From positions 1-49,058 of the forward strand of contig JAQTWO010000001.1 of assembly GCA_028689245.1 (NCBI GenBank): a stretch of 49,058 bases of DNA, written 5' to 3'. The translations under genes and the position numbers were made by a program. The DNA is from Candidatus Altimarinota bacterium (GTDB lineage Bacteria; Patescibacteriota; Gracilibacteria; BD1-5; UBA2023). Below are positions 25,996 through 47,515 of this stretch, in pieces. The notes beneath the pieces are model-generated. The model made no database searches, was not told the origin of the DNA, and saw only the letters and a list, made by a program, of their open reading frames with translations. The number at the start of each line of letters is the position of its first letter. Position 1 is the first letter of the stretch.

Positions 25996-28900
25996 TTATT
26001 TCGCCACGATTCCATAGAGTTTATTTGGAACAAATATCTCTCGAACTATCGTGAGTCCATCCAGCCATTTGTTGATATCTGGGTCTTCCATGACTCGTGC
26101 TGCAACTTCTTCTTGAGAAACTCCATTGAGGAAGGTATGCGTTCCTCGAAGCTTCCCATTGATCTGAATAGCAATCGTCACTTCGTCATCGACGAGCATG
26201 AAATCCTGATATTCTGGCCAAGTAGCGTTGAAGACAGACCTCACCCCCTGCCCCTCTCCATCCATAGAGAGGGGGGTTTGATGTATTTTTCCTCCCTCTC
26301 CACACGTGGAGAGGGTTGGGGTGAGGTAAGACCAAAGCTCTTCCGCCAAATGCGGAGCAAATGGATGAAGCATTATAGCGAAATTCTCTTTCCATTCTTG
26401 TGCGCTTTCCGCATCTTTCGGAAGTCCTTCATTTACAAGGATCATGAGAGCAGCGATGGCAGTATTGAACTTGAATGCCTCGATGTCTTCACCGACCTTT
26501 TTGATGGTCTTGTGCATAAGCTTCATGGCTTTCATGTCATCCGTCGCAAAGCGTGGAGTTTCGAAGATGGCATACGCCTTATCAAGGAATCTTCGAACCC
26601 CGATGATAGCCTCTGTGTTCCATGGAGCAGAGTCTCGAAAATCCGCCATATACATCTCATAGAGACGGAATGTATCCGTCCCGTGTTCCTCGATGATAGA
26701 ATCTGGATTCACCACATTTTTCAGGCTTTTGCTCATCTTTGCGACGATTCTCTTTACTTCTTTTCCGGTAGCGGTTTCATAGAATTTTCCTTCCCGCTCT
26801 TCCACGAGATCGATGGCAACCAATCATCCATTTTCCCGTTCGTACGCATAGGAAAGAATCATCCCCTGATTATGGAGTTGTTGAAATGGCTCACTCGTCG
26901 GAACCACTCCTATATCGAAAAGGAATTTGTGCCAGAATCGTGCATAGAGCAGATGAAGAACGGCGTGTTCCGCTCCACCGACATAGCTATCCACATTCTG
27001 CCAGTATTTCAATAATTCTGGATCGACGATATATTCTGTATTGGCAGGGTCCATGAATCGGAGATAGTACCAACAAGAACCTGCCCATTGTGGCATAGTA
27101 TTGGTCTCACGCTTTCCTGTAAGATTGCTCGCAAGTTGTATATTTACAAAATCTGGAACCAATGCGAGTGGACTATTTCCGTCACCTGCTGGCTCAAAAT
27201 TCTCCACTTCTGGGAGCTCCAGCGGGAGGTGGTAATCGCAGATGATTTTCCCATAGAGTCCGTCGTAGATTTTGGAAACGACTTTTCCTCCAATTACGAG
27301 CTCACGAACTTTTCCACCGCAAGTCGCTCATACGGAACATTCGTCAGTAATCTCGTCTCGTTTGAGAATATAAGCAAGATTCACATCGGTTGCCTCAGAA
27401 ATATCGGAAATATGCGGAAGTTTTTTAAGGTCTTCGATTTCGAGGTGGATAAGCGGAATCGGTTCCCCCCAATATCGCTGACGAGAGAAAAGCCAATCAC
27501 GAAGTTTGTAATTGGTTTTCTTCTTTCCAAAGCCTTCGGATTCTGCTTTTTCGGCAAGTTTTTCGCGAGCTTCGGCAGAAGTGAGCCCAGTGAATTCGGC
27601 AGAATTTACGAGGATTCCATCTTCAGTAGTTATCTTCTTTATGTCTCTAATCATTCTTTCAATAGCATTGGCTTGGTCTTGTTTATTATTTTCCTCAAAA
27701 TCTTTTATAAGTTCATCGACTGGTACCCAAACTAATTCTACATTGTCATCATAATTATAGTCACTGATTTTCTCAATGTCTACATCTACAGAAAATATAT
27801 AATGAAGCATTGTTCTATCTGCTTGTTTTGGCTTCGAAAACCAATTCATTTGATAGACTCATAATTGATTCATTGCCTTTACAGAAACTCTAAGCTCTTC
27901 TATAATTTCCCTTGATAGACTTTCTTCTGGCTCTTCTCCCTCCTCGATTCCACCACCGATAAGTAAATATTGTCCATTAAATTTTGTCGAATCAGCCTTT
28001 GAAGATAGTTTTTCGCATAAAATTTTTCCATCTTTCATAATCACTGCACCAACCCTATCTCTTTTTTCAGAATTTTCTTTAAATACTCCGAAGGTTAGAG
28101 CAATACTCTGTTTTATCGGCAACCCCATCTTCTTCGCGAACTCAAAATCTCGTTCATCATGAGCTGGAACTGCCATAACCGCTCCCGTTCCGTAGGAACC
28201 GAGCACATAATCCCCTATCCAAACCGGGATTTGTTCTCCGTTAAAAGGATTCACAACATAGGAACCAGTAAAAACTCCCGTTTTCTCTTTTCCTTCGTTC
28301 GTTCGTTCGAGATCGGATTTTGCCTTGGATTCAGCGATATATTTTTCACAAGCAACTCGCTGCTCTGGAGTTATCCAGTTGTTCACATCTTTATGATCGG
28401 CTGCGAGCACGACATACGTCATCCCGTAAACCGTGTCTATTCGGGTGGTATAGACAGAAATAATATCTTCTGTACGAGAGTTTGTTTTTTCCTTGATATA
28501 TTTCATAAAGACCGTCTTCTTTAGGATTGCCGATTCATCACAAGGTTTGTTATACATAGCATAAATTCCTCGAATTTTTTCCATCTGAAAATCTTTTGGC
28601 GTATCGAGTTTTATGAATCAAAAATCATGATAATATTCCTCCAATTCTTTATCGCAGTCAATATAGAATTCGGTATTATTTGAGTGGTGGATGAGATGGG
28701 CAAATAATTTATATCAGAGTTTTCTTCCTCGAAACTCAGGATATATATACAGTCATCCGATATCAACAGCATCGTTTGTTCCATGTATTCTTGCAAAACC
28801 AACCATCTTTCCTTCTTTCTTCGCAACGATAAATTGCTCTTTTGCAAATTTATACGTATTTGCTTGATCCGCATTTTTTACCCGAAGAATTTCCTGAAAA

Positions 28901-29655
28901 TCTTCATCTGTCGCACCACTATAGGAAAAATCCTCTGCTCTTTTCAAAAAGAACTCCACCCCTTCGCTCTTCCCTATCCAGTTTCGTTGCATATCCTTAA
29001 TTCCTTCTGGCCAATCCAGTGCATCCACATCGGTCAAGAGTCGCTCTGCATAGGCAGTGATTTTCAGTACCCACTGGCGAATCTTACGTCGTTCCACACG
29101 AGTCCCACATCGATCACAGTTATTGTCTCCAACTACCTCTTCGTTAGCAAGTCCTGTCTTGCAACTGGGACAATAGTTGATTGGTAAATCTTGTTCGTAC
29201 GCAAGTCCTGCCTCAAAAAGCTTCAGAAATATCCACTGAGTCCATTTGTAGTACTCTGGATCTGTTGTTGCAATCTCACGACTCCAGTCATAGGAAAAAC
29301 CGAGTGAGAGAAGCTGACGTTTGTAATTGGCGATATTTTCATCGGTAATCTTTCTCGGGTGTATCCCTGTTTTGATCGCATAGTTTTCCGTCGGGAGACC
29401 GAAACTGTCCCACCCCATGGTGTGAAGCGTGCGAAATCCCTTATTGTGTTTGTAACGCGAAACGATATCGCTCGCTATATACCCTTTAGGGTGACCAACA
29501 TGCAGTCCTGCCCCCGACGGATATGGGAAAAAATCAAGCGTATAATATTTTGGAGTATCGAAATCCGAAGGCGTAACCGGATTGGGGGTTGCAAATACTT
29601 TGGTATCTTCCCAAAATTTCTGCCATTTTGATTCGATAGATTTTGGATTATACAT
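25996..29655 (-). CDS. leuS: Leucyl-tRNA synthetase with embedded GNAT-like and Nudix-like domains
   Basis: A 1219-residue protein; bacterial LeuRS is usually about 800-880. Canonical parts are in order: HVGH at 52-55, zinc-type [13 protein letters not shown], editing-domain TTRIDTVYG near 403 and [18 protein letters not shown] near 490, VNSAEF near 683, KMSKS near 974, and the C-terminal domain. Between SEGVEFF and TTR lies a GNAT-like segment (about 240-350: [15 protein letters not shown] is motif A). Between GLPIKQ and the VNSAEF element lies a Nudix-like domain (about 528-675: [13 protein letters not shown] then REIIEELRV, with Arg for the last Gly of the box). Six TGAs, three inside or at the edge of the GNAT segment. 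A palindromic repeat adds about 30 residues near the end. The start is the ATG at 29653-29655. First gene of the dcd series. Confidence 0.93.
26239..26326. repeat. GC-rich palindromic repeat translated within leuS
   Basis: CCTCACCCCCTGCCCCTCTCC at the left and GGAGAGGGTTGGGGTGAGG at the right are complementary, with two small hairpins (CTCTCC...GAGAGG; CCACACGTGG) between. It is translated into about 30 residues ([11 protein letters not shown] and STCGEGG) in the C-terminal part of LeuRS. Confidence 0.8.
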
Positions 29656-29754
29656 AAGAGTTCTCAAGTTATAAGGTTTTAATGTTCTCAAGTTCCATGC
29701 GGAAGATTCTTTAGAACTTTCCGCTTTAGAACTTTTGACTGTGTTTATATTATA
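29656..29754 (-). promoter_or_regulatory. leuS leader region and -10 box
   Basis: Minus-strand TATAAT at 29749-29754 without a good -35. The leader of about 85 nt holds two AGTTCTAAAG copies, a GCGGAA/TTCCGC stem, two AACTTGAGAAC copies, and a 9-codon ORF (M-E-L-E-N-I-K-T-L) ending just before the leuS start. It could be an attenuation-type leader, unproven. Confidence 0.4.
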
Positions 29755-29791
29755 GAAAACCTCTCATTTGTCCACTTTTTGTCCACAAAAA

Positions 29792-29817
29792 AATCCCTTC
29801 GTTCTCACGAAGGGATT
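29792..29817 (-). terminator. Terminator of the pilin-like gene
   Basis: AATCCCTTCGT-TCTC-ACGAAGGGATT, perfect 11-bp stem. On the minus strand it is followed by seven T, 15 bases after the stop of the pilin-like gene and before the leuS promoter. Confidence 0.85.
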
Positions 29818-29831
29818 CCATATCATGAACA

Positions 29832-30176
29832 TTATTTAACAAGTGACTCGATAACGAACTTGATGATAGAAGAAGCGATGAAGATAACAAAGAGTCCGAG
29901 AACAGCATTTACGAGAATCTTCTTCCCTCATTTTACTTTGTCGTCATTTCCACCGGCAGTGAGTATCTGGAACCCTCCGTAAAGAGCGAATGCAACCGCT
30001 ATCAGGTAGAGAAAATTCGTTGCAAATGACATGAGTGACTGAGCGGCAGTCGGGAAATCATCAGTACGTCCTTGTAATCGTGAATCCACTCCTCCTGGAC
30101 TAATGGCCGCAAAAGACTGTTCAAGAGAAGCAAGAGTTGCAACGGAGATAAAACCAACTTTTTTGAGTATCTGCAT
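29832..30176 (-). CDS. TrbC/VirB2 pilin-like membrane protein
   Basis: A 114-residue protein: signal peptide (about residues 1-24, ending SFA), a short exposed segment, then two membrane helices around a conserved turn (GGFQILTAGGNDDKVK, followed by a TGA glycine). This two-helix pattern with the GG-N-D-D-K-V turn is typical of pilin-like proteins common in CPR genomes, grouped with conjugal TrbC/VirB2 pilins. The N-terminal part of the giant protein at 36896-42355 is a paralogue of it. No secretion genes lie beside it. It has its own promoter (30210-30238) and terminator. Confidence 0.78.
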
Positions 30177-34525: not shown

Positions 34526-36877
34526 TTATTCTTGAATAACTATCTCACGATCTGTGGATCTGACCGTTCTGTCTGAATAGGTCACGGTAATCTTGATTTT
34601 AAATTTTCATGCGGATTCATACGTATGGGTTGGGGTAGCTTCTTCAGAGATTATACCATCCCCAAAATCCCACTTGTACGCCTCTATCTGCCCAATAGTG
34701 CCATCGGTATCAAAATCGATCGGTTTTCCAACTATACCAGACGATACGCTCGTATGAAGCATGATACGTTTTGGGGTATCTTTTATAACTATTTTTCTGG
34801 AGGATTGGTCCCGGGCTCCGTCATCACGGACAACCGTGAACGTAAGGGTATATTCTCCCGGATTAACATATTTGTAATCCTGAACGGCATCTCCTTCAAC
34901 AACTCAATGACCATCTCAAAAATCATATATGAATTTCGTGATCGTACCCTGTTTCGGACTACTTGCGGATCAGTCCACATGAATGGTGGCAGGAGCGTAT
35001 TCCGAGTCTTGCGTAAGATTGAGAGACAGTGATATGTTTTTCTTTTCTGGTTCGAAGATAACCTTTTCTTCCAAAAAAGCCGTAATGTTTTTATCTTTGT
35101 ATTCAAAAGTATAGCGTACTCGGAATGTGTAACGTTTTTCCTCGATGAGCTCATATTTCATAAGTGCTCCTGACCCCTCAAATATGCCATCCCCATTAGA
35201 ATCCCACTCTACTTTCGCGAGATGATATCAATAATTTTCTACTTTTACATCCGTAGCATCAAATTGTATGGAGAGGGGTAATGAAATAGCTATGTCTTTG
35301 ATATAGTAGGCTTCAAGTGCTCAATTATACGAGTTGTCTATAAGGGATTTTCCCGACACATCGCTGACTTTCAAAAGAGACATGGTATGAGGTCATTTTG
35401 AGAGCATGAGCGGTGGATACGTAACAAAAGTATCGGTCAATTCGGTGGTATTTCCAGCTGAATCGGTCAATGTAAGAAGTACTTTTACGTCTCCATAGGT
35501 GGGAAAACGATATATAAAAGACTCACTCATAGAAACGGACATATTGTTAATCTTCCATTCATAACGGACGATCTCTCCGTTTTTTATCGTCCTATCGGTA
35601 AGATGAAAGGAATATGCGAGCGGGTCCGCCTTGTCTTGGTCATGGATAATTTTTCCATCGACGTGTGAATCTGAGATTTGTGGGACTATGAAAAGTTTAT
35701 CACAATTGGTTCCATCAAAGACGCTCAAGCAGAGTATCTGTCAAACATCTTTCATGCTCATGGAAAAAGTATCATCACTGCTGATAACCGAGAGATTATC
35801 GTCTTTTTCCGTAAGCCAATGGATTTTACCGAAATTTTTGAGTTTCGATGCATTGTAATTGACAATTTTATCATTGCCGGTTTTTGGGGACTGAATATCT
35901 ACCACTCCGATAATCTGGATGGTTTGAAAATTGATGGGAAGCGAGAGTGTCTTATGTGTCAATCTATCCACTCCATCGTATCTCCCCGTTGGTTTAAAGA
36001 CTTTTGCTTGATCAAACGTACAAATAATACTCTGATCGTTCTGAGGGTTTACTCCTGTGACACGAGAGGAAATTCATCATTGACACTTTGCACCGTCAAA
36101 GTCGATTTCATAGCTATCTATATCCATTATCTTCGCTGCAAGTCCCGCATCTGCTTTGAGGTCGAATTTGAGTACCAGCGGACCGATGAGGTTTTCAAAA
36201 TTCATCATCCTCGCTTCATTTTTGAATCGCTCGGAAGTGAGTTTCTCGTTATCATACACGAGGACTCATCCGTTTGGATTCTCATAGTCCGTTGCGCTAA
36301 TTTGTTTTTCAAGAAATGCCCAAAGAGTAATCTCAGAGAAAAACAATACCCCAATAAATCCTGCAAGGATAATAGAAATCGTCTTTTTTTTCTTGTATTC
36401 TTTTTTCGTGAGGATGGCCTTGAAAAGATAAATAATCCAAACAACTGCCAGAATGAAAGTAGCGATCCCAAATATCGCTCGGACCAATTGTTGAAGCCAA
36501 ATGGTAATATCTCCCGGATTGATACCGAGAGACAGAAAAAAGCTTGCCTGTCCTGGATTGAATACGATATATGCGAGAAATGCCCCAAAGAAGATGAGAG
36601 TCACCAGCAACATTGCTCAAACCAACCGGAGAAACGTCCCGGTATTTATCGACTTCTTCGGTATTTTTTTCGTGGATTCTGATGGCGGAGCATCTGGCGA
36701 AATTACGGATGTTTCCAATGTCGTGTCAGTGGATGAGACAACTTCTTCGATAAATGATTCCGATAATAAATCTACCTGAGAGGGGGAAGTATTTTCAGAT
36801 GCCAAAATATCACCGAGAAGACTCCCCGATGTATTAGGAGAGTCTTCTTTGAGAAGGTTTTCATTATTTTGAGACAT
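34526..36877 (-). CDS. Large membrane protein with PKD domains
   Basis: A 783-residue protein read through twelve TGAs. The first ~86 residues are acidic and cytoplasmic; three membrane helices follow (AMLLVTLIFFGAFLAYIVF, then two more, to about residue 195); the rest is an exposed region with PKD-type Ig folds. The last two are clear: FIYDFGDGHG (both motif glycines written TGA) and YKWDFGDGII followed by THTYESAGKF. A segment VEWDSNGDGIFEG resembles a calcium-binding loop. It starts 18 bases after the stop of the 1819-residue protein, so they form an operon. Probable role: cell-surface adhesion or attachment apparatus, inferred from PKD content. Confidence 0.85.
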
Positions 36878-36895: not shown

Positions 36896-39800
36896 CTATT
36901 TAAGCCAATCAGGGAGTTCCTCGGAATCAACCGGGATAACTGGTCATTCTGATACGATCGGCTCGAGTTTCGGCTTTTTGACACGGAGCTTAGGGGCAGG
37001 CATTTCAGAATCCGATGATGGACTCTGTTCTGGTTCCGATTTTTGTTTCCGTTCCGATTTTTGTTTTCAGGCAGTTTTTATGTGCGTCTTTGACGGGGTT
37101 GATTCTCATTCTGATTCCTTGATTATCGTTTCCTCGGATTTGATCTCCTTGGACACTTGAGGCAGAGAAATTTCTTCTGCAGGGGGAAGAACCTCCTCCT
37201 GTGTGACGGACGGTTGAGTCACTCCCTTGAGCCAATCCGGAATGTCTTCATAGGAAGTATCTTCTCTTTTCGGAGAGAATGGTGGTGATTCCAGCTCTTT
37301 CTGTACTTCCTGTTCCAAAGAAGCGGAATCTATTCCCTGCATCCATGCAGGCATTTCAGAGATATCATTGGTTGTAGTAGCCGTATCTCACTCCGTTGCA
37401 ACGGTTTCTGTGGAAAGTGGCATATCGACCACAGAGGAGACTTCTGCTCACTTGAGCCAATCAGGAAGCTCGGAAGCAATGGGAGTTTCTTCGTTCGTTT
37501 GCTGTAGATCCGGTATCGTTTGCAAAGGTTCTTCTTCAGGAGTGGCAAGTGCCGAGACTGGGGCTATTGTCATACTGGGAGTGGGAGTCTCTGCCTTTGT
37601 CTCATCTCCATGCACATGTGCAGAACTGAGACTCGTGGATTCTTTGAGCCAATCAGGAATGACAGCGTCTTTGATTTCTGTGGATTCTCCAGAAGGAACA
37701 GAGGCAAGTATATCGGTGTTCGACGGAGGAACGACTGGATTTGTGACGGGAATATTTGCAAGTATATCTTTTTGCATACTCTCCTCTTTTTTTACCGGTG
37801 ATGTCTCCACGACAATCGATGCACTATAATCTGCAGTCTTCGGCGGATGTTTCCCCGACAATTTATCGATGATGAAATCCTGAAACCCGATATTGTCATC
37901 TTTATTGGATACCTTAAAATAGATAAAAACAAGCAGGATAAACCCGGATAGCGCCAGAAGTACGTATCCAAAAATCTTTCCGAACGTGAGGACCCAATCC
38001 AGGATGCCTGAAGAGCTATTTGTATCGGGAGGAACAACGGTTGCCGGAATATTATTCTGACCTCCGTAGATGATAGTCTGGAGTTGTGACTTGATGGTAT
38101 TTTTATCTTTTAATTCAATAGCGTTGTCATCTTTGATAGCATTCAGGATAAATGTACCGAGTTCTTTATTGAGAGTGGTATTTGTTGGATGAGAGATAAT
38201 ATCATCGATATTCTTGATAATTTGGTCATAGGAAGGATTGGTTTTCGGTATGAGGGATTTGAGCACCTTGGTCGCGAGTCCAACATCGCCTTTCGTCTGA
38301 GTATCCGAGAGGATAAATCCATCGAGAAGAGAATAAAATTTATCCTTTGTTGCCGCATCGAGTGCGGAGTTCGTACCGAGGTATGCTTCAAAATCGACGA
38401 TAGTTCTTGTCTTTTCACGAGCGTCGAACCAATTCTCTTGAAGGCTTGCAAAAAATTGCATCATCTTCAATCGATCCTGTTCTTTTGCACTCTTGATAAG
38501 ATCTTTGAGCGTTTCAAGATTCGTCTTATCAATACTGGAAATGTCTTTCGGAAGTTCTGATCCTGTTCCGGAAAGATTTTCCGGAACGATTCCTGTAATA
38601 AAATCGTAGATTATCTTGATATCTTTTGTGGCGATAACCGTATTGTTTGCATCATAGAGACTTAAACGCATGGTCTTTTCTTTGGCGGTCACATCAGAGC
38701 TTTTGATCGTGAATACACTGCCGTTAATGGAGGAATCCGTTCCTTTATTGTCTATGTCATCCGTTGGATCACCATTGAGATTGGAATCAACAAGGATATC
38801 CGTATCGATTCCATATTTGGCAATACTTGCATTTTTTGATTCTCCGAGATAGATGGAGAGCGAGTCGGCACTATTGGTAATATGTATCGTATCTTGATCC
38901 GCGGAAGGGTAGGTGAAGAAGATAAGTTTATCCGTTGACTTTTTGACTTTCATCGCATTGACAACATCTCGTCTCAAGGTTGCACTCGTACTCTTGGTTA
39001 CGGTTCCATCGGATACTTCCAATGTAATATCTCCCGTCACACTCTCGTTTCCGAAATTGTACAGAAAAGAATCGGAGCTATCGGATGTTACATCCGCAAT
39101 CGACCACTTCGCCTTGGTGTAAAGTCCTTTGGTAGTATTGAGGAAGATAAATTTATTACCGATAGCGATATATTCGATATTGGGTTCGATTTCGTTCTTG
39201 ACGGTAATGGCTTGGTATTTCGTATTGGAGATACCCTTATACGTTACCTTTATCTTGAAATTGAAATTCCCTGGCTTATCATACACATGGCTCGCAGTAG
39301 GAGTACTGGTAGTTTCCTCATAGAATCCATCACCATTGTAATCCCATTTGTATTCCGCTTTGGACGCAAGATCAGCACCGAGAATGTTTTTGGCACCCAC
39401 CGTGAAATCTATTTTTTGACCGACCGATACGCTATTTGCAGAAGTCTTGAGGGAGATGATCGGGGTATTGATATTATCGGAGGCAAGTGTCAGAGCATAC
39501 CGCTCAGTACTCATATCATCGCTATTTACCTTGAGTCCGTTAGAATCTTCCAATATAACCGCAAAATAATACTTTGCACCTACGCGGGGGAGGACAAATA
39601 CGGTCTTTGGTGTTCTAGTGATACGGAAGTCCTGTGGCTCCGGATCTTCTTCCGTGTAATAATACCATATGTATGATGCGATAGCCCCATCGTCATCCAC
39701 GGCATTATTGGCAGTAACCGTAACAACTACCGGATCAGCATCGAGTTTATCGGTCGTCACCGTGAGAGATGAGAGCTTCGGAGCAAGATTTTCAACCTTC

Positions 39801-42355
39801 ACGTATGCTCTGGTAGTATCCTGGGCTCCGGTCTTTTGACTACGAACCGTGAGACTTACAGGAAAACATCCGAGTTCGTCGAATTTATAACTGAAATCCT
39901 TTTGAGAAGAATTTCGTGTCCCATATTTCCAAGTATACGCTATCCCCTGATTGGTTCCATCGGTATTGACACTATTTTCAGCACTCATAGTTACCGCTTT
40001 GGATCGGTCGATAACAAAAGCCTCTTTGCCATCGCATGCATCAGGTGATGGGATAATCTCTTCGTTGTCCCATTTGAGAGCGATAATCGCGAATGGATTG
40101 GTACTATCCATGACGTATACCTTCCGGGTGATGGAGTTACTATCCGATCCACGTCCGCGAACGGTGAGATTCACGGAATACGTTCCGGCCTTTTTATAAA
40201 CGTGATTGACTCTTCCTGTCGTACTTGTATCGGTCTCTCCATCTCCGAACTGCCATTCAAATACTTGAGCTTCTTTGGAATCTGCAATCAGAGAGATGAC
40301 AGATCCGACTTTTCCTATCTTTGGGGAAGTGATGAGCTTAACGGAGAGGAGTGAGTCAATGTTTACATCTTTGTTATAAGAAACCGTTTTCCCATCTTTG
40401 TTGGATCATTCCAGTGTTATTTTGTGAGTTCCAACCGTATCGAATGTATATCGTCCAATTGCACCATTTCGTGCAGGATTCGCAAGATCCGTACGTACAC
40501 CGTCAATTATCCAAGAAAAGTTGAGATTGGCAGAGTCCATATTATCAGGATCATAACTTCTGGTTCCATCGAGAATGAGAACATTGGGAGATTCGGAACT
40601 CACGGATTTGGCATCAAAGGATACGACGGGATCGTGACCCTGTATGTTGATACTAATGGTATCTATATCCTCTTTGCCATTCGATGCGAGGGTTCTGAGT
40701 TTTACTGAATATCTTCCGGTTCGTGGGAATTTGTACGTGATATTTTGAAGATCAGATGTAAATACTACTTTCTCCCCCTCCGATTCCACAATCTGCCATG
40801 TATATCCCAGATTGGATATCATCGCCGAACGAGAGGCGCTGAATCGAAATTCGTCACGAGGAAATCCCTCGATCTTGTCGGCTTGGATGCTGGAAATTGG
40901 ATCTCGTATTTCGATATTGAGCTCCTTTGTGACTTTGTGGTTTTCATTGGTGATGAGTTCCATTTTGAATCGGTAGTTTCCTTCATTGTAGTAAATCTGT
41001 CGATCCAATGTTGGTGCACCGTTATATTGGGCAACATTCCCGTTTCCATACTCGAAACGAGTAGAAACAAATTTCGTACCGGCAGCAGATGTGGAACCTG
41101 TCGGATCGATCATGAGCCCTTGTCTTCCTTGTGCAGGAGTAAATTTAATAGTATCCAGGTTGGAAACATAAACTCCATTGATAGCAAGGGAGATATTTCC
41201 AAGCTTCGGGAGCACGTTTACATTTATGAAACCATCAAACGGAAGTACATCCGTTTTTCAGAGCTTATTACGACTCGCAGAAATGATATTCAGAAATACC
41301 GTATAGGTACGCTCTTCCGTAAAAGTATGGTTAATAGACGGCCCAGTTCCGAGAACAGACATCTGTCCATTGGAAGCACGAATCCACCATTTATAGTTGT
41401 CTTTCGGTACGGTAACTCCGGATGGATCGATTACTTCAGCCGCTCGGAGAGTCACGGTAAATGGGGCATTCCCCGATTCCGGTGATGCGATGATCTTCCC
41501 TTTGATACGGTTTACTTTCACTTTTGTGAGATAGGCACTCAGATTCTGTGCGAGGTTTGCGATAGCCGTATCGGAATCTGGGTTCTTTTTCACTACTTCG
41601 ATAGCGGTGATAAGAGAATTGGCAAGATTCATATTAAAAACAACGTTGTCGGAATCGGGAAACGTCTCCATGGAAGATTTCACGAGCGTGGTAAGGGTTC
41701 CAAGCGTTTTTGTAGTAATCTTATTATTTACCTGATATTCACGATCCAGTGTCGAACTCAGGAGCTCAATCTGTTTTTTGTAATTATCAAAAGTATTGAG
41801 ATCATATTCCGTGTAGGCATAGGTTGTTTGTATAAAGGAAGGAAATTCAAACAGTGTGGCACCGGAATTTCCCGTATTCAATACGCCTCAGCCATTTTTT
41901 CCTCCAATAAAAAATGTGACGATGGAATACGCGAGGAATATAAGGAAGAATCCGATAATAACATGGAAAATAATAGATTTCGATTTCTTAACCTTGTCAT
42001 CGTTTCCTGCCGCGGTCAGAATCTGGAATCCTGCATAGATAATATACGCTACTCCTACCACCGAGAGAAATACCAGAAGATATGCGATGATATCCTGTAC
42101 ATACTGAGAAAATTTCCTATTCTTTTCAATATCATTTATATGGGCACTTACCACCTGGGTCCCTCGATCGATAGAACAGTACGTTGCAGAAGCGGGATCA
42201 TTGCTATTGCAGTAATCTATCTGTGAAGAACTTGAGCAATCCGTTCCAAATATGCTACATACAGCAGAGACCGGAGTGAAAAAGGAAGAGAGAAGGATTC
42301 CGAGTGTCGCAAGAAGGATAGGAAAGTGTATTTTTGATTGTGAAAATATACGCAT
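36896..42355 (-). CDS. Giant surface protein: pilin-like N-terminus, PKD repeats, transmembrane segment, cytoplasmic PDWLK-repeat tail
   Basis: An 1819-residue protein assembled across eight TGAs, all in one frame with no TAA or TAG. A signal peptide (about 1-31), a Cys-rich stretch, and a two-helix pilin-like module (IYAGFQILTAAGNDDKVKK, paralogous to the 114-residue protein at 29832) come first. A TGA at 41888-41890 leads into about 1,300 residues with several PKD-like domains (FEWQFGDGE, YKWDYNGDGFYEE, FSWIIDG). A membrane helix lies near 1453-1480 (GYVLLALSGFILLVFIYF). The acidic tail carries recurring PDWLK/PAWMQ motifs, ending in PDWLK. Likely a surface filament or attachment protein; the tail motif may bind a cytoplasmic partner. 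With the standard code it would appear as several proteins. Confidence 0.82.
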
Positions 42356-45500: not shown

Positions 45501-47372
45501 TTACATTCAAAATAACTCCTTTAATTCCTTTGTAGATTCCAGACTTTTAAAATATTTTGTTAAAGTAAATCAGGGATTTTCGTATTTTTCAGGAATAAGA
45601 TAATCCTTCATTCTAGATATTATTTCATCGTATATCTTATCTAATTCAGCTAACATTTTTTTATCATCTCCCCAATATCACTGTGCAAGTTTTCATCAAT
45701 AATCACCTCCTTTAACATCAAGAAAACTTTTATAAATCATCAGTATATGATATGAAGAATGAAATACGAATGCTTTATCAAGCTCCATAATCTCATCTTG
45801 TGAAGGTCACGAATTTCAAACTTCTGGCATCAAGTCAATTACATCTTCATATCATTCAATTTTTTTTAGTTTTTTTATGATATGATTGTATTTTTTCTTA
45901 TATTCTCTCTCCTTACCGGAAATAAACTCGTAAATTGAACATGCGATAAATAAGTCGGTATATTTTGTATCTTTATTAAATATATCTTCATAAAAACCAT
46001 TGTCTGTCTTTGAAAAAAAGATTTTTCCGACTTGGGATTTTGCCTTTTCTGGAGATTGGAGATAAAAAGCAAGATATACCTGTGCAAAAAATGTATTTTC
46101 TATTTTATAAATTCACTCTGGAGTCCTCTTTGTAAATTCACCTCGCCTTGTTTCATACCATATATTGGTATATTTAAAAAAGTCTTTTTGGAGTCTTTGT
46201 TGCTCTATGTCATTTGAATAAAAATCCCTTGGAGTAACGGTATTTTGTGAATTTGTATATTTAGTAATATTCTTATCAAAAATATCCCCAGGACTATTAA
46301 TGATCCTAAATGTTATCTTGACATTATCATCCAGTATATCTCGATCGCTTGAAGTTAAATTAGAATAATAATCACTTATTGTTTTGAACGTTTGTGCTCA
46401 ATTTATTATTTGAAGTCATTTTATTTTTATTGTAACATCTGGACTCTCAAGGTTTGGTTTTTCTATTCTTTTAGCAATTCAAGTTATTCAATTATTGTAG
46501 TACCAGAAATTTTGTGGCTCATCTTTGAGGGTATCGGCTATTTTTTTATTAAATCCAGATTGTTCTAGAGGATTTCTTATATTGTCCTGAAAAATAGAAT
46601 ACTCATATTTTTTGAATAAGTCATATATTTCCTTTGGTTTAATAAAGAACATATAGGACTCATAGGGTGTCGGGAATTTAATAATCTTATGATTTCATTC
46701 ATTTAAGGATACTGGGTTTAGTTCAATATATTCCTGAGGTTTCCTTGGTGAAATTAAAGGATTTTTTACTTTAAATCACTTATATTGTTCATCAATATAA
46801 TCTATTTTTAGTTTATTAATATCAAAGATGAGTAGTTCTACAAAATCTTTATCCTGATTAAATAAGTCAATTCGTTTTTTGTCTTTTGTATCCAAATCAA
46901 TATTTTTAAAGGTCAGGATTATAAAATTTATTTTTCCTCAAATTCTTACATGATTTAATAGTTGCTGATATTTTAGTCTAAATGACTCGTTTCTTGTATC
47001 AAATAAGTCTTTTTTTGATTGTTTAATTTCATTAAATTCAGTAATAATTCAATTAAAAGTTTTAGCATCTATATTTTCTTCACATCTCTGTATAGTATTC
47101 CATTTTGATTGCAATATATAAAATTCTGTTTTTCAATCATAATTCTCTAGGGTAAATATTGAATCTGCTGAATTATCTCAAGATCATTCAGTAATACTTG
47201 ATAGAATATCACCATCAAGAACCCCAGCCTTCTTTAAAAACCATATATTAAATGCAAAAGATTTTTTTCGTTCATCTGTATTAATATTATTTTGTACGAG
47301 ATATGCATTATATTGCTCAATAATGAAATGCAGTTCGCTATCAATCATCTTATAGAAGAATTTATTTTTCAT
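45501..47372 (-). CDS. AIPR-family (abortive infection phage resistance) protein
   Basis: A 623-residue protein that is invisible with the standard code: about 20 in-frame TGAs. The AIPR signature is clear in the middle: DNIRNPLEQSG, then FWYYNNGITGIAKR and LQIINGAQTFKTI, where the glycines of NNGIT and INGAQT are TGA. The N-terminal region (residues about 1-110) includes KTEFYILQSKW, similar to the nuclease-like start of such proteins. AIPR proteins occur in abortive-infection and restriction-linked defence; the mechanism is not firmly established. It begins two bases after the DpnI-like fragment, suggesting translational coupling. AT-rich, like other defence or transferred genes. Confidence 0.88.
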
Positions 47373-47374
47373 AA

Positions 47375-47515
47375 TTAAAAATACTTTAAAAGATAATTTT
47401 CATAAAAAAGACACGTCTCATTATATATAAAGCCTGTCCAGAACTCAGTCATCACTCTTGCTCTTTGTGAGTTACTCGTGTATCCGAGTGCTTTGTTTGT
47501 ATCCAGAAAAGGCAT
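47375..47515 (-). pseudogene. DpnI-like restriction enzyme N-terminal fragment
   Basis: A 46-residue ORF, MPFLDTNKALGYTSNSQRAR then VMTEFW, resembles the start of DpnI-type endonucleases (YKSNSQKARILTEDW in DpnI, from memory), but stops where the zinc-binding CPxC part should begin. Either a truncated remnant or a small protein made from that module. Its stop lies two bases before the AIPR start. Confidence 0.5.

What the first reader, a model, noticed from the sequence alone, without database searches (positions are those of the whole stretch)
36896..42355. 1819-residue pilin-PKD-PDWLK fusion protein revealed by recoding
Under code 25 a pilin-like two-helix module, an ectodomain of about 1,300 residues with PKD domains, a further membrane helix and an acidic tail with repeated PDWLK motifs form a single chain. 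A free-standing paralogue of the pilin module exists at 29832-30176. The second PKD protein at 34526-36877 is its operon partner. CPR cells are often episymbionts, so a surface attachment machine is a reasonable guess.
Basis: partly seen in the sequence, partly recalled or inferred. Interest (0 to 1): 0.65.

Follow-up and report, generated by a model that had tools for sequence, protein, structure and literature searches.

The report
Pilin-headed PKD envelope protein in Gracilibacteria
A giant membrane protein of tiny, probably host-dependent bacteria joins a secretion-type pilin, a long stack of PKD domains and a cytoplasmic tail of repeated PDWLK peptides in one chain; its close relatives tie it to the type IV pilus machinery, so it is probably a core part of that cell-surface machine rather than a stray adhesin.

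Summary
On the minus strand, 36896-42355 encodes one 1,819-residue chain under code 25: signal peptide, VirB2-type T4SS_pilin hairpin, PKD-rich ectodomain, transmembrane helix, and an acidic tail with four PDWLK motifs plus one PAWM variant. It is not an artefact of recoding: a relative without any in-frame TGA (G014) and 23 Peregrinibacteria/Peribacteria-type proteins, nearly all read with the standard code, carry the same pilin-PKD fusion. Homologues of the main body occur in nearly all genomes of the order; outside the class none was found (E <= 1e-40).

The reading goes beyond 'attachment'. In a sister family the pilin module is a separate gene, and in 19 of 23 loci it heads a type IV pilus operon (PilN-like, PilO-like, PilC, prepilins). 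In the window's family that operon lacks the pilin, which is fused to the PKD gene instead. Some relatives place the gene beside a prepilin peptidase, a prepilin, an M23 peptidase and a solute-binding protein. P0002 is a partner with its own pilin-like hairpin.

Best explanation: a doubly anchored stalk/scaffold of a type-IV-pilus-linked envelope machine. Adhesion is possible but untested. The PDWLK tail is an undescribed multivalent motif; its partner is unknown.

The parts
36896..42355 (-). P0001: whole gene, 1,819-residue pilin-PKD-TM-PDWLK protein (code 25)
   Evidence: homologues
42263..42355 (-). signal peptide, about residues 1-31 (inferred by eye)
   Evidence: sequence
41906..42112 (-). 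VirB2/T4SS_pilin hairpin, residues about 82-150, with a basic loop DDKVKKSK
   Evidence: Pfam PF18895 28.5 bits; helices in the AlphaFold model
41888..41890 (-). UGA codon 156 (Gly), just after the pilin module; would be a stop under table 11
41501..41833 (-). N-terminal helical domain of the ectodomain, about residues 175-285
   Evidence: AlphaFold helices 130-219 of the model = 189-278 of P0001
38606..41500 (-). beta-sandwich/PKD part of the ectodomain, about residues 286-1250; best PKD domain at 668-750
   Evidence: Pfam PKD_4/PKD; ColG PKD Z 13.0, 1.3 A
38066..38539 (-). juxtamembrane all-helical domain, about residues 1273-1430
   Evidence: AlphaFold, pLDDT mostly about 90; no significant PDB match
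37907..38008 (-). membrane helix, about residues 1450-1483
   Evidence: AlphaFold, sequence
36899..37903 (-). acidic, probably disordered cytoplasmic tail, residues 1485-1819
   Evidence: only its first part (to residue 1560) was modelled, mostly at low pLDDT
37643..37657 (-). PDWLK motif 1 (1567-1571)
37451..37465 (-). PDWLK motif 2 (1631-1635)
37337..37351 (-). variant motif PAWMQ (1669-1673)
37226..37240 (-). PDWLK motif 3 (1706-1710)
36899..36913 (-). PDWLK motif 4 (1815-1819), the exact C-terminus
   Evidence: column K1819 nearly invariant
34526..36877 (-). P0002: partner with a cytoplasmic N-tail, 3 membrane helices (the last two a pilin-like hairpin) and a PKD ectodomain
   Evidence: present in 18 of 18 genomes searched; adjacent downstream in 14 loci of the window's family
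29832..30176 (-). P0003: free-standing T4SS_pilin (35.8 bits), a more distant paralogue without the cysteine pair

Best explanation
P0001 is a conserved, doubly membrane-anchored stalk/scaffold subunit of a type-IV-pilus-linked envelope machine of the Gracilibacteria class. SHOWN from sequence and models: Sec-type N-terminus, VirB2-type pilin hairpin, about 1,290-residue ectodomain of helical and PKD/beta-sandwich domains, a second membrane anchor, and a tail with repeated PDWLK peptides; a conserved partner, P0002, with its own pilin-like hairpin and PKD arm. INFERRED: the hairpin lies with its basic loop in the cytoplasm, so the ectodomain is outside and the tail inside. Because the chain re-enters the membrane it cannot leave as an ordinary pilus subunit; instead its hairpin would pack with other pilin hairpins (P0002's, free pilins) around the PilN/PilO/PilC platform, the PKD arms would cross or brace the cell wall and surface layer where the pilus emerges, and the multivalent tail would recruit a cytoplasmic assembly or positioning factor. 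Help in gripping a host cell would follow from this role but is not shown.
For: Pilin-PKD fusion in one frame without recoding: G014 has no in-frame TGA; standard-code relatives. Near-universal in the order; P0002 in 18 of 18 genomes searched. In the sister family the body lacks the pilin (match starts near residue 180), and a separate pilin, the genome's next-best match to P0001 (up to 51% identity), heads PilN-PilO-PilC-prepilin operons in 19 of 23 loci (PilC = T2SSF 1e-47). In the window's family 0 of 11 T4P clusters carry a pilin there, including the own genome's. A cysteine pair before the hairpin is shared by most fused and operon pilins but absent from P0003-type pilins. Where the context is intact, P0001-P0002 follows PilD, a prepilin, an M23 peptidase and a solute-binding protein (L077 by Pfam, similar order in L068 and L073 by sequence); the solute-binding gene is directly upstream in 13 loci. 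PDWLK array conserved.
Against: No interaction, localisation or expression data. The own window has lost the T4P-like neighbours: RNase J and TopA flank the pair. The pilin tree is poorly resolved, so orthology of the fused and operon pilins rests on best matches, the cysteine pair and complementarity, not on a supported clade. PilN and PilO were named by position and size; Pfam has no model match for them. AlphaFold inter-domain geometry is unreliable (pTM 0.43). The same hairpin family also occurs beside VirD4-like genes in these genomes, which would equally fit a T4SS role.
Confidence: 0.5

Rival explanations
1. Host-attachment adhesin: the PKD stalk is a grappling or binding arm, and the pilin hairpin and C-terminal helix are just membrane anchors.
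For: PKD/Ig stacks are typical of adhesins; the top Foldseek match of the ectodomain is the grappling-hook protein GhpA of the bacterium Aureispira; giant membrane proteins with PKD domains are proposed host-recognition proteins in Vampirococcus (PMC8080830).
Against: The GhpA match is a generic domain-array match with low TM-scores, and the re-alignment ranks plain PKD domains first. The gene is near-universal in the order, usually single-copy, with about 100 invariant columns among 24 relatives. Two anchors plus a conserved docking tail are not needed for a simple adhesin. It does evolve faster than RNase J (67-69% against 88-92% identity within the genus), so a variable-contact role is not excluded.
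Confidence: 0.22
2. Subunit of the Patescibacteria type IV secretion system rather than of T4P: the VirB2-type hairpin joins the T4SS translocon and the PKD arms act as its trans-envelope conduit.
For: The module is of T4SS_pilin type. Triple-hairpin pilin proteins lie directly beside a VirD4/T4SS-DNA_transf ATPase in both families. In Peregrinibacteria-type loci such triple-hairpin genes are immediately upstream of the pilin-PKD gene, a direct link. PMC12102498 reports a widespread, divergent T4SS with VirB2-like pilins in this phylum.
Against: In the window's order the fused or separate module sits with T4P genes, not with the ATPase/triple-pilin genes. The two machines may share parts.
Confidence: 0.2
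3. Envelope-cytoskeleton tether: the PDWLK tail mimics the FtsZ C-terminal peptide and docks on FtsA or a PilM/FtsA-like actin homologue, placing the complex at a site or pole.
For: The motif consensus [ED]x[ILV]PDWLK resembles the FtsZ C-termini of the same genomes (LDVPAFLR and similar). In every FtsZ tested that C-terminal peptide is the protein's best match to the motif profile. A PilM/FtsA-like gene exists in the own genome (below Pfam's cut-off).
Against: About 1-2% of unrelated protein C-termini score as well; FtsZ has F, not W, and A/S/T, not D.
Confidence: 0.08

Closest known systems
T4SS_pilin / VirB2-TrbC (PF18895, PF04956), VirB2-like pilins of Patescibacteria (PMC12102498)
   Same: signal peptide, two-helix hairpin with a basic loop; above the Pfam cut-off
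   Different: fused to about 1,670 further residues with a second membrane anchor and a tail; cannot be released as a small subunit; the passages of that paper returned by a term search mention no pilin fusion
PKD-domain surface proteins (e.g. giant membrane proteins of Vampirococcus lugosii, PMC8080830; ColG PKD)
   Same: tandem PKD/Ig-like domains; residues 668-750 match ColG PKD with Z 13
   Different: pilin head, cytoplasmic PDWLK tail, near-universal and usually single-copy in the order, linked to T4P genes
Type IV pilus inner-membrane platform (PilM/N/O/C)
   Same: in the sister family the pilin module's separate counterpart is the first gene of the PilN-O-C operon
   Different: P0001 itself has no prepilin motif and shows no similarity to PilM, N, O or C in the searches made
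FtsZ C-terminal conserved peptide
   Same: acidic-x-[ILV]-P-x-aromatic-L-[KR] pattern
   Different: W and D at key positions, 3-7 copies, carried by a membrane protein

Membership tests
T4SS_pilin (PF18895) | profile score above the gathering cut-off | tested here: met
   28.5 bits against 26.6, residues 91-149
T4SS_pilin (PF18895) | two-helix hairpin after a signal peptide | tested here: met
   AlphaFold helices 82-114 and 119-150; the signal peptide is judged by eye
T4SS_pilin (PF18895) | small free subunit that can polymerise into a pilus | tested here: not met
   hairpin continues into about 1,670 further residues with a second membrane helix; P0001 is therefore a pilin-domain protein, not filed as a pilin
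PKD domain | PF18911/PF00801 match and beta-sandwich fold | tested here: met
   4-5 stretches, E about 1e-31; ColG PKD Z 13.0, rmsd 1.3
Type IV prepilin | N-terminal methylation motif (GFTLIE-like) | tested here: not met
   no N_methyl match among the P0001 Pfam hits; no such motif in the N-terminus
Type IV pilus system component | encoded with PilN/O/C, PilD or prepilins | tested here: inconclusive
   met in relatives: separate module heads PilN-O-C in 19 of 23 loci, P0001 homologue near PilD/prepilin in L077; not met in the window itself
Type IV pilus system component | physical association with, or requirement for, pilus assembly | not testable with these tools
   no protein data
Genetic code 25 (Gracilibacteria/SR1) | UGA read as glycine | tested here: met
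   Gly 25.5% against 4.5% background in TGA columns; column 366 Gly in 21 of 23
FtsZ-type C-terminal peptide | significantly closer to FtsZ C-termini than to other protein C-termini | tested here: inconclusive
   FtsZ within the top 1-2% of C-termini

The most novel reading that the evidence does not exclude
P0001 and P0002 form a so far undescribed hybrid machine in which VirB2-type pilin hairpins serve as fixed membrane building blocks of a type IV pilus base, with PKD arms outside and a multivalent PDWLK array inside that docks an actin-like FtsA/PilM-type protein, coupling the pilus or host-contact site to the division or positioning machinery.
Probability: 0.1. Interest if true: 0.85.

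Novelty: new variant of a known kind. Interest (0 to 1): 0.6.

Why it matters
Type IV pili and a relaxase-less T4SS are two systems implicated in how Patescibacteria reach and exploit their hosts (PMC12206443, PMC12102498). A near-universal protein that carries a T4SS-type pilin domain, but whose separate form belongs to a type IV pilus operon, suggests that the two systems share parts, or that a VirB2 hairpin has been recruited into the T4P base. It also names a concrete gene pair and a peptide motif to test, and gives a candidate explanation for how long surface arms are anchored in these cells.

Tried and rejected
Recoding or assembly artefact: rejected (G014 without TGA, standard-code relatives). 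PDWLK as a general docking motif of many proteins: rejected, whole-genome scans of five genomes find the extended motif only in P0001 homologues plus one isolated hit in G043. PDWLK in the literature: seven papers contain the letters, those listed all unrelated. GhpA as a specific relative: not supported, generic Ig array. Fold of the juxtamembrane helical domain: no PDB match at E <= 0.001. Clean clade of fused plus operon pilins: tree too poorly resolved. A shared INDIEKxR signature of fused and operon pilins: only a minority carry it, so the cysteine pair is used instead. PilM as reader of the tail: PilM is not clearly detectable in most genomes (several weak hits are FtsA next to FtsZ). 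PamR (CPR_pilus_PamR, NCBIfam): 13.4 bits against a cut-off of 300, confined to a PKD region; no paper found under that name. A2 could not be used for the phylum scan (column limit); A1 was used.
Full report
WHAT IS THERE. The gene is on the minus strand. Under table 25 window:36896-42355:- is one 1,819-residue chain with eight in-frame UGA codons; under table 11 it would break after residue 155, just behind the pilin module. UGA as glycine is supported by the relatives: in alignment columns that contain a TGA the sense residues are 25.5% glycine against 4.5% overall, and column 366 is glycine (sense or TGA) in 21 of 23 relatives. Several other UGA codons, mostly in the tail, fall in columns that are not glycine in relatives and carry no information either way. 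The nearest records found by name are Candidatus Gracilibacteria.

ANATOMY. Residues 1-31 look like a signal peptide (by eye). Residues 91-149 match T4SS_pilin above its cut-off; AlphaFold gives two helices, about 82-114 and 119-150, with a basic loop that by the positive-inside rule should be cytoplasmic (inference). The ectodomain has a helical part (about 175-285) and a long row of beta-sandwiches (286-1250), of which 668-750 is a bona fide PKD domain (ColG PKD, Z 13.0, 1.3 A). A helical domain (1273-1430) follows, without a significant PDB match, then a membrane helix (1450-1483) and a 335-residue acidic tail (64 D+E, 31 K+R) with PDWLK at 1567, 1631, 1706, 1815 and PAWM at 1669. Topology is self-consistent: hairpin loop in, ectodomain out, tail in. 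Inter-domain geometry is not reliable (pTM 0.43).

THE TAIL MOTIF. Over 214 instances the consensus is acidic-x-[ILV]-P-D-W-L-K-G, 3-7 copies in nearly every full-length relative, with the last one at or near the C-terminus. In the own genome the exact motif occurs only in this protein; in five genomes the extended pattern finds P0001 homologues and one isolated hit in G043. Some standard-code relatives have a single C-terminal copy (L078, L084). The motif resembles the FtsZ C-terminal peptide of the same genomes (LDVPAFLR), but about 1-2% of unrelated C-termini score as high, so this is a lead, not a result.

RELATIVES. All 59 genomes searched in the order match P0001 at E <= 1e-5, but in three less complete ones (G020, G021, G025; 70-80% complete) the listed matches cover only the pilin; in the others the main body is found, sometimes cut by contig ends. 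A phylum-wide sample of 240 genomes gave matches at E <= 1e-40 only in the same class. Peregrinibacteria/Peribacteria-type relatives, nearly all of which read with the standard code, have the pilin and PKD parts in one frame (23 proteins; L107 needs TGA read through). In several of these the PDWLK-bearing membrane protein is a separate next gene (L079, L080, L092, L095, L143), so the window's protein looks like a pilin-PKD protein joined to that second protein; the direct similarity of the juxtamembrane region is weak (E about 1e-4).

THE PILIN MODULE MOVES. In sister family f2 the body starts near residue 180 and a separate pilin is the genome's next-best match to P0001. In 19 of 23 f2 loci that pilin is the first gene of an operon PilN-like, PilO-like, PilC, prepilins; PilC is confirmed by Pfam (T2SSF, 1e-47), whereas PilN and PilO are named by size, membrane helix and place, with no Pfam match. 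In f1, the window's family, none of 11 T4P clusters examined has a pilin there. Most fused and operon pilins share a cysteine pair before the hairpin that P0003-type pilins lack. A tree of 107 modules is too poorly resolved to prove a single clade. The complementarity is Rosetta-stone-like evidence that the PKD protein works with the T4P platform.

NEIGHBOURS. P0002 follows P0001 in 14 f1 loci and was found in 18 of 18 genomes searched. Its last two membrane helices align in register with the pilin hairpin (hhalign E 1e-4, probability 56%; one relative, L084, matches the pilin model at 2e-6), so P0002 is probably a paralogue built on the same plan. A solute-binding protein gene is directly upstream in 13 f1 loci; in L077 the run is PilD, unknown, Glucodextran_B-domain protein, prepilin, M23 peptidase, solute-binding protein, P0001, P0002, with a similar order in L068 and L073 by sequence. 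The window has lost this context. In Peregrinibacteria-type loci one or two genes with three hairpins each lie upstream; in both Gracilibacteria families such triple-hairpin genes lie next to a VirD4/T4SS-DNA_transf ATPase. The hairpin family is therefore shared between T4P-linked and T4SS-linked genes.

CONSERVATION. Within the genus P0001 is 67-69% identical over full-length copies, against 88-92% for RNase J; it evolves faster than a housekeeping protein but keeps about 100 invariant columns across 24 relatives. That fits a core envelope machine with exposed parts; it does not exclude contact with hosts.

MECHANISM. Because both ends are anchored, P0001 cannot be a released pilus subunit. 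The best-supported picture is a stalk or scaffold whose hairpin packs with other hairpins near the PilN/O/C platform, whose PKD arms brace or cross the wall, and whose tail recruits a cytoplasmic factor several times over. Membership of the T4P system is inferred from gene order, not shown biochemically; T4SS and adhesin roles remain live rivals.

LITERATURE. The Patescibacteria T4SS survey (PMC12102498) describes VirB2-like pilins and arrays, and VirB6 as scarce or absent in Microgenomatia and Gracilibacteria respectively; in the passages returned by a term search no pilin fusion is mentioned. Vampirococcus work mentions PKD domains in giant membrane proteins (PMC8080830). The motif was not found described. 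The library holds only open-licence papers, so priority cannot be excluded.

Noticed in passing
L218, L219, L225, L226, L227 (G004, G005, G050, G043, G049); own genome copy of the triple-hairpin gene at L144:5339-6292: A protein with three T4SS_pilin hairpins (6 helices) lies directly beside a VirD4/T4SS-DNA_transf ATPase in both families; it could be the VirB6-like platform that PMC12102498 reports as absent in Gracilibacteria.
   Followed up: partly
window 25996-29832 (-): Leucyl-tRNA synthetase with a GNAT acetyltransferase domain (about 300-413) and a NUDIX domain (about 591-718) inserted around its editing domain.
   Followed up: partly
window 45501-47414 (-): AIPR-family protein (PF10592, 6e-46; an abortive-infection phage-resistance family by name) with 21 in-frame TGA, far more than its neighbours.
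   Followed up: no
G000 contigs C74 and C45 (L173, L174): Clusters of further T4SS_pilin modules; about 16 module matches in the own genome, several below the family cut-off.
   Followed up: no
L223:4348-5787, L227:3028-4116: Multi-hairpin pilin proteins next to the VirD4-like ATPase carry TSP3-like repeats (DxDGVxDxxDxCP) at their N-terminus.
   Followed up: no
P0001 homologues across the order: In-frame TGA count per homologue runs from 0 (G014, G022) to 94 (G048), so the use of the reassigned codon varies widely between lineages.
   Followed up: no
P0001 residues about 1004-1010 and 1184-1203: Strongly conserved acidic motifs (WDxDGDGFY, DSDLNGxxDDDxDNK) that look like calcium-binding loops.
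   Followed up: no
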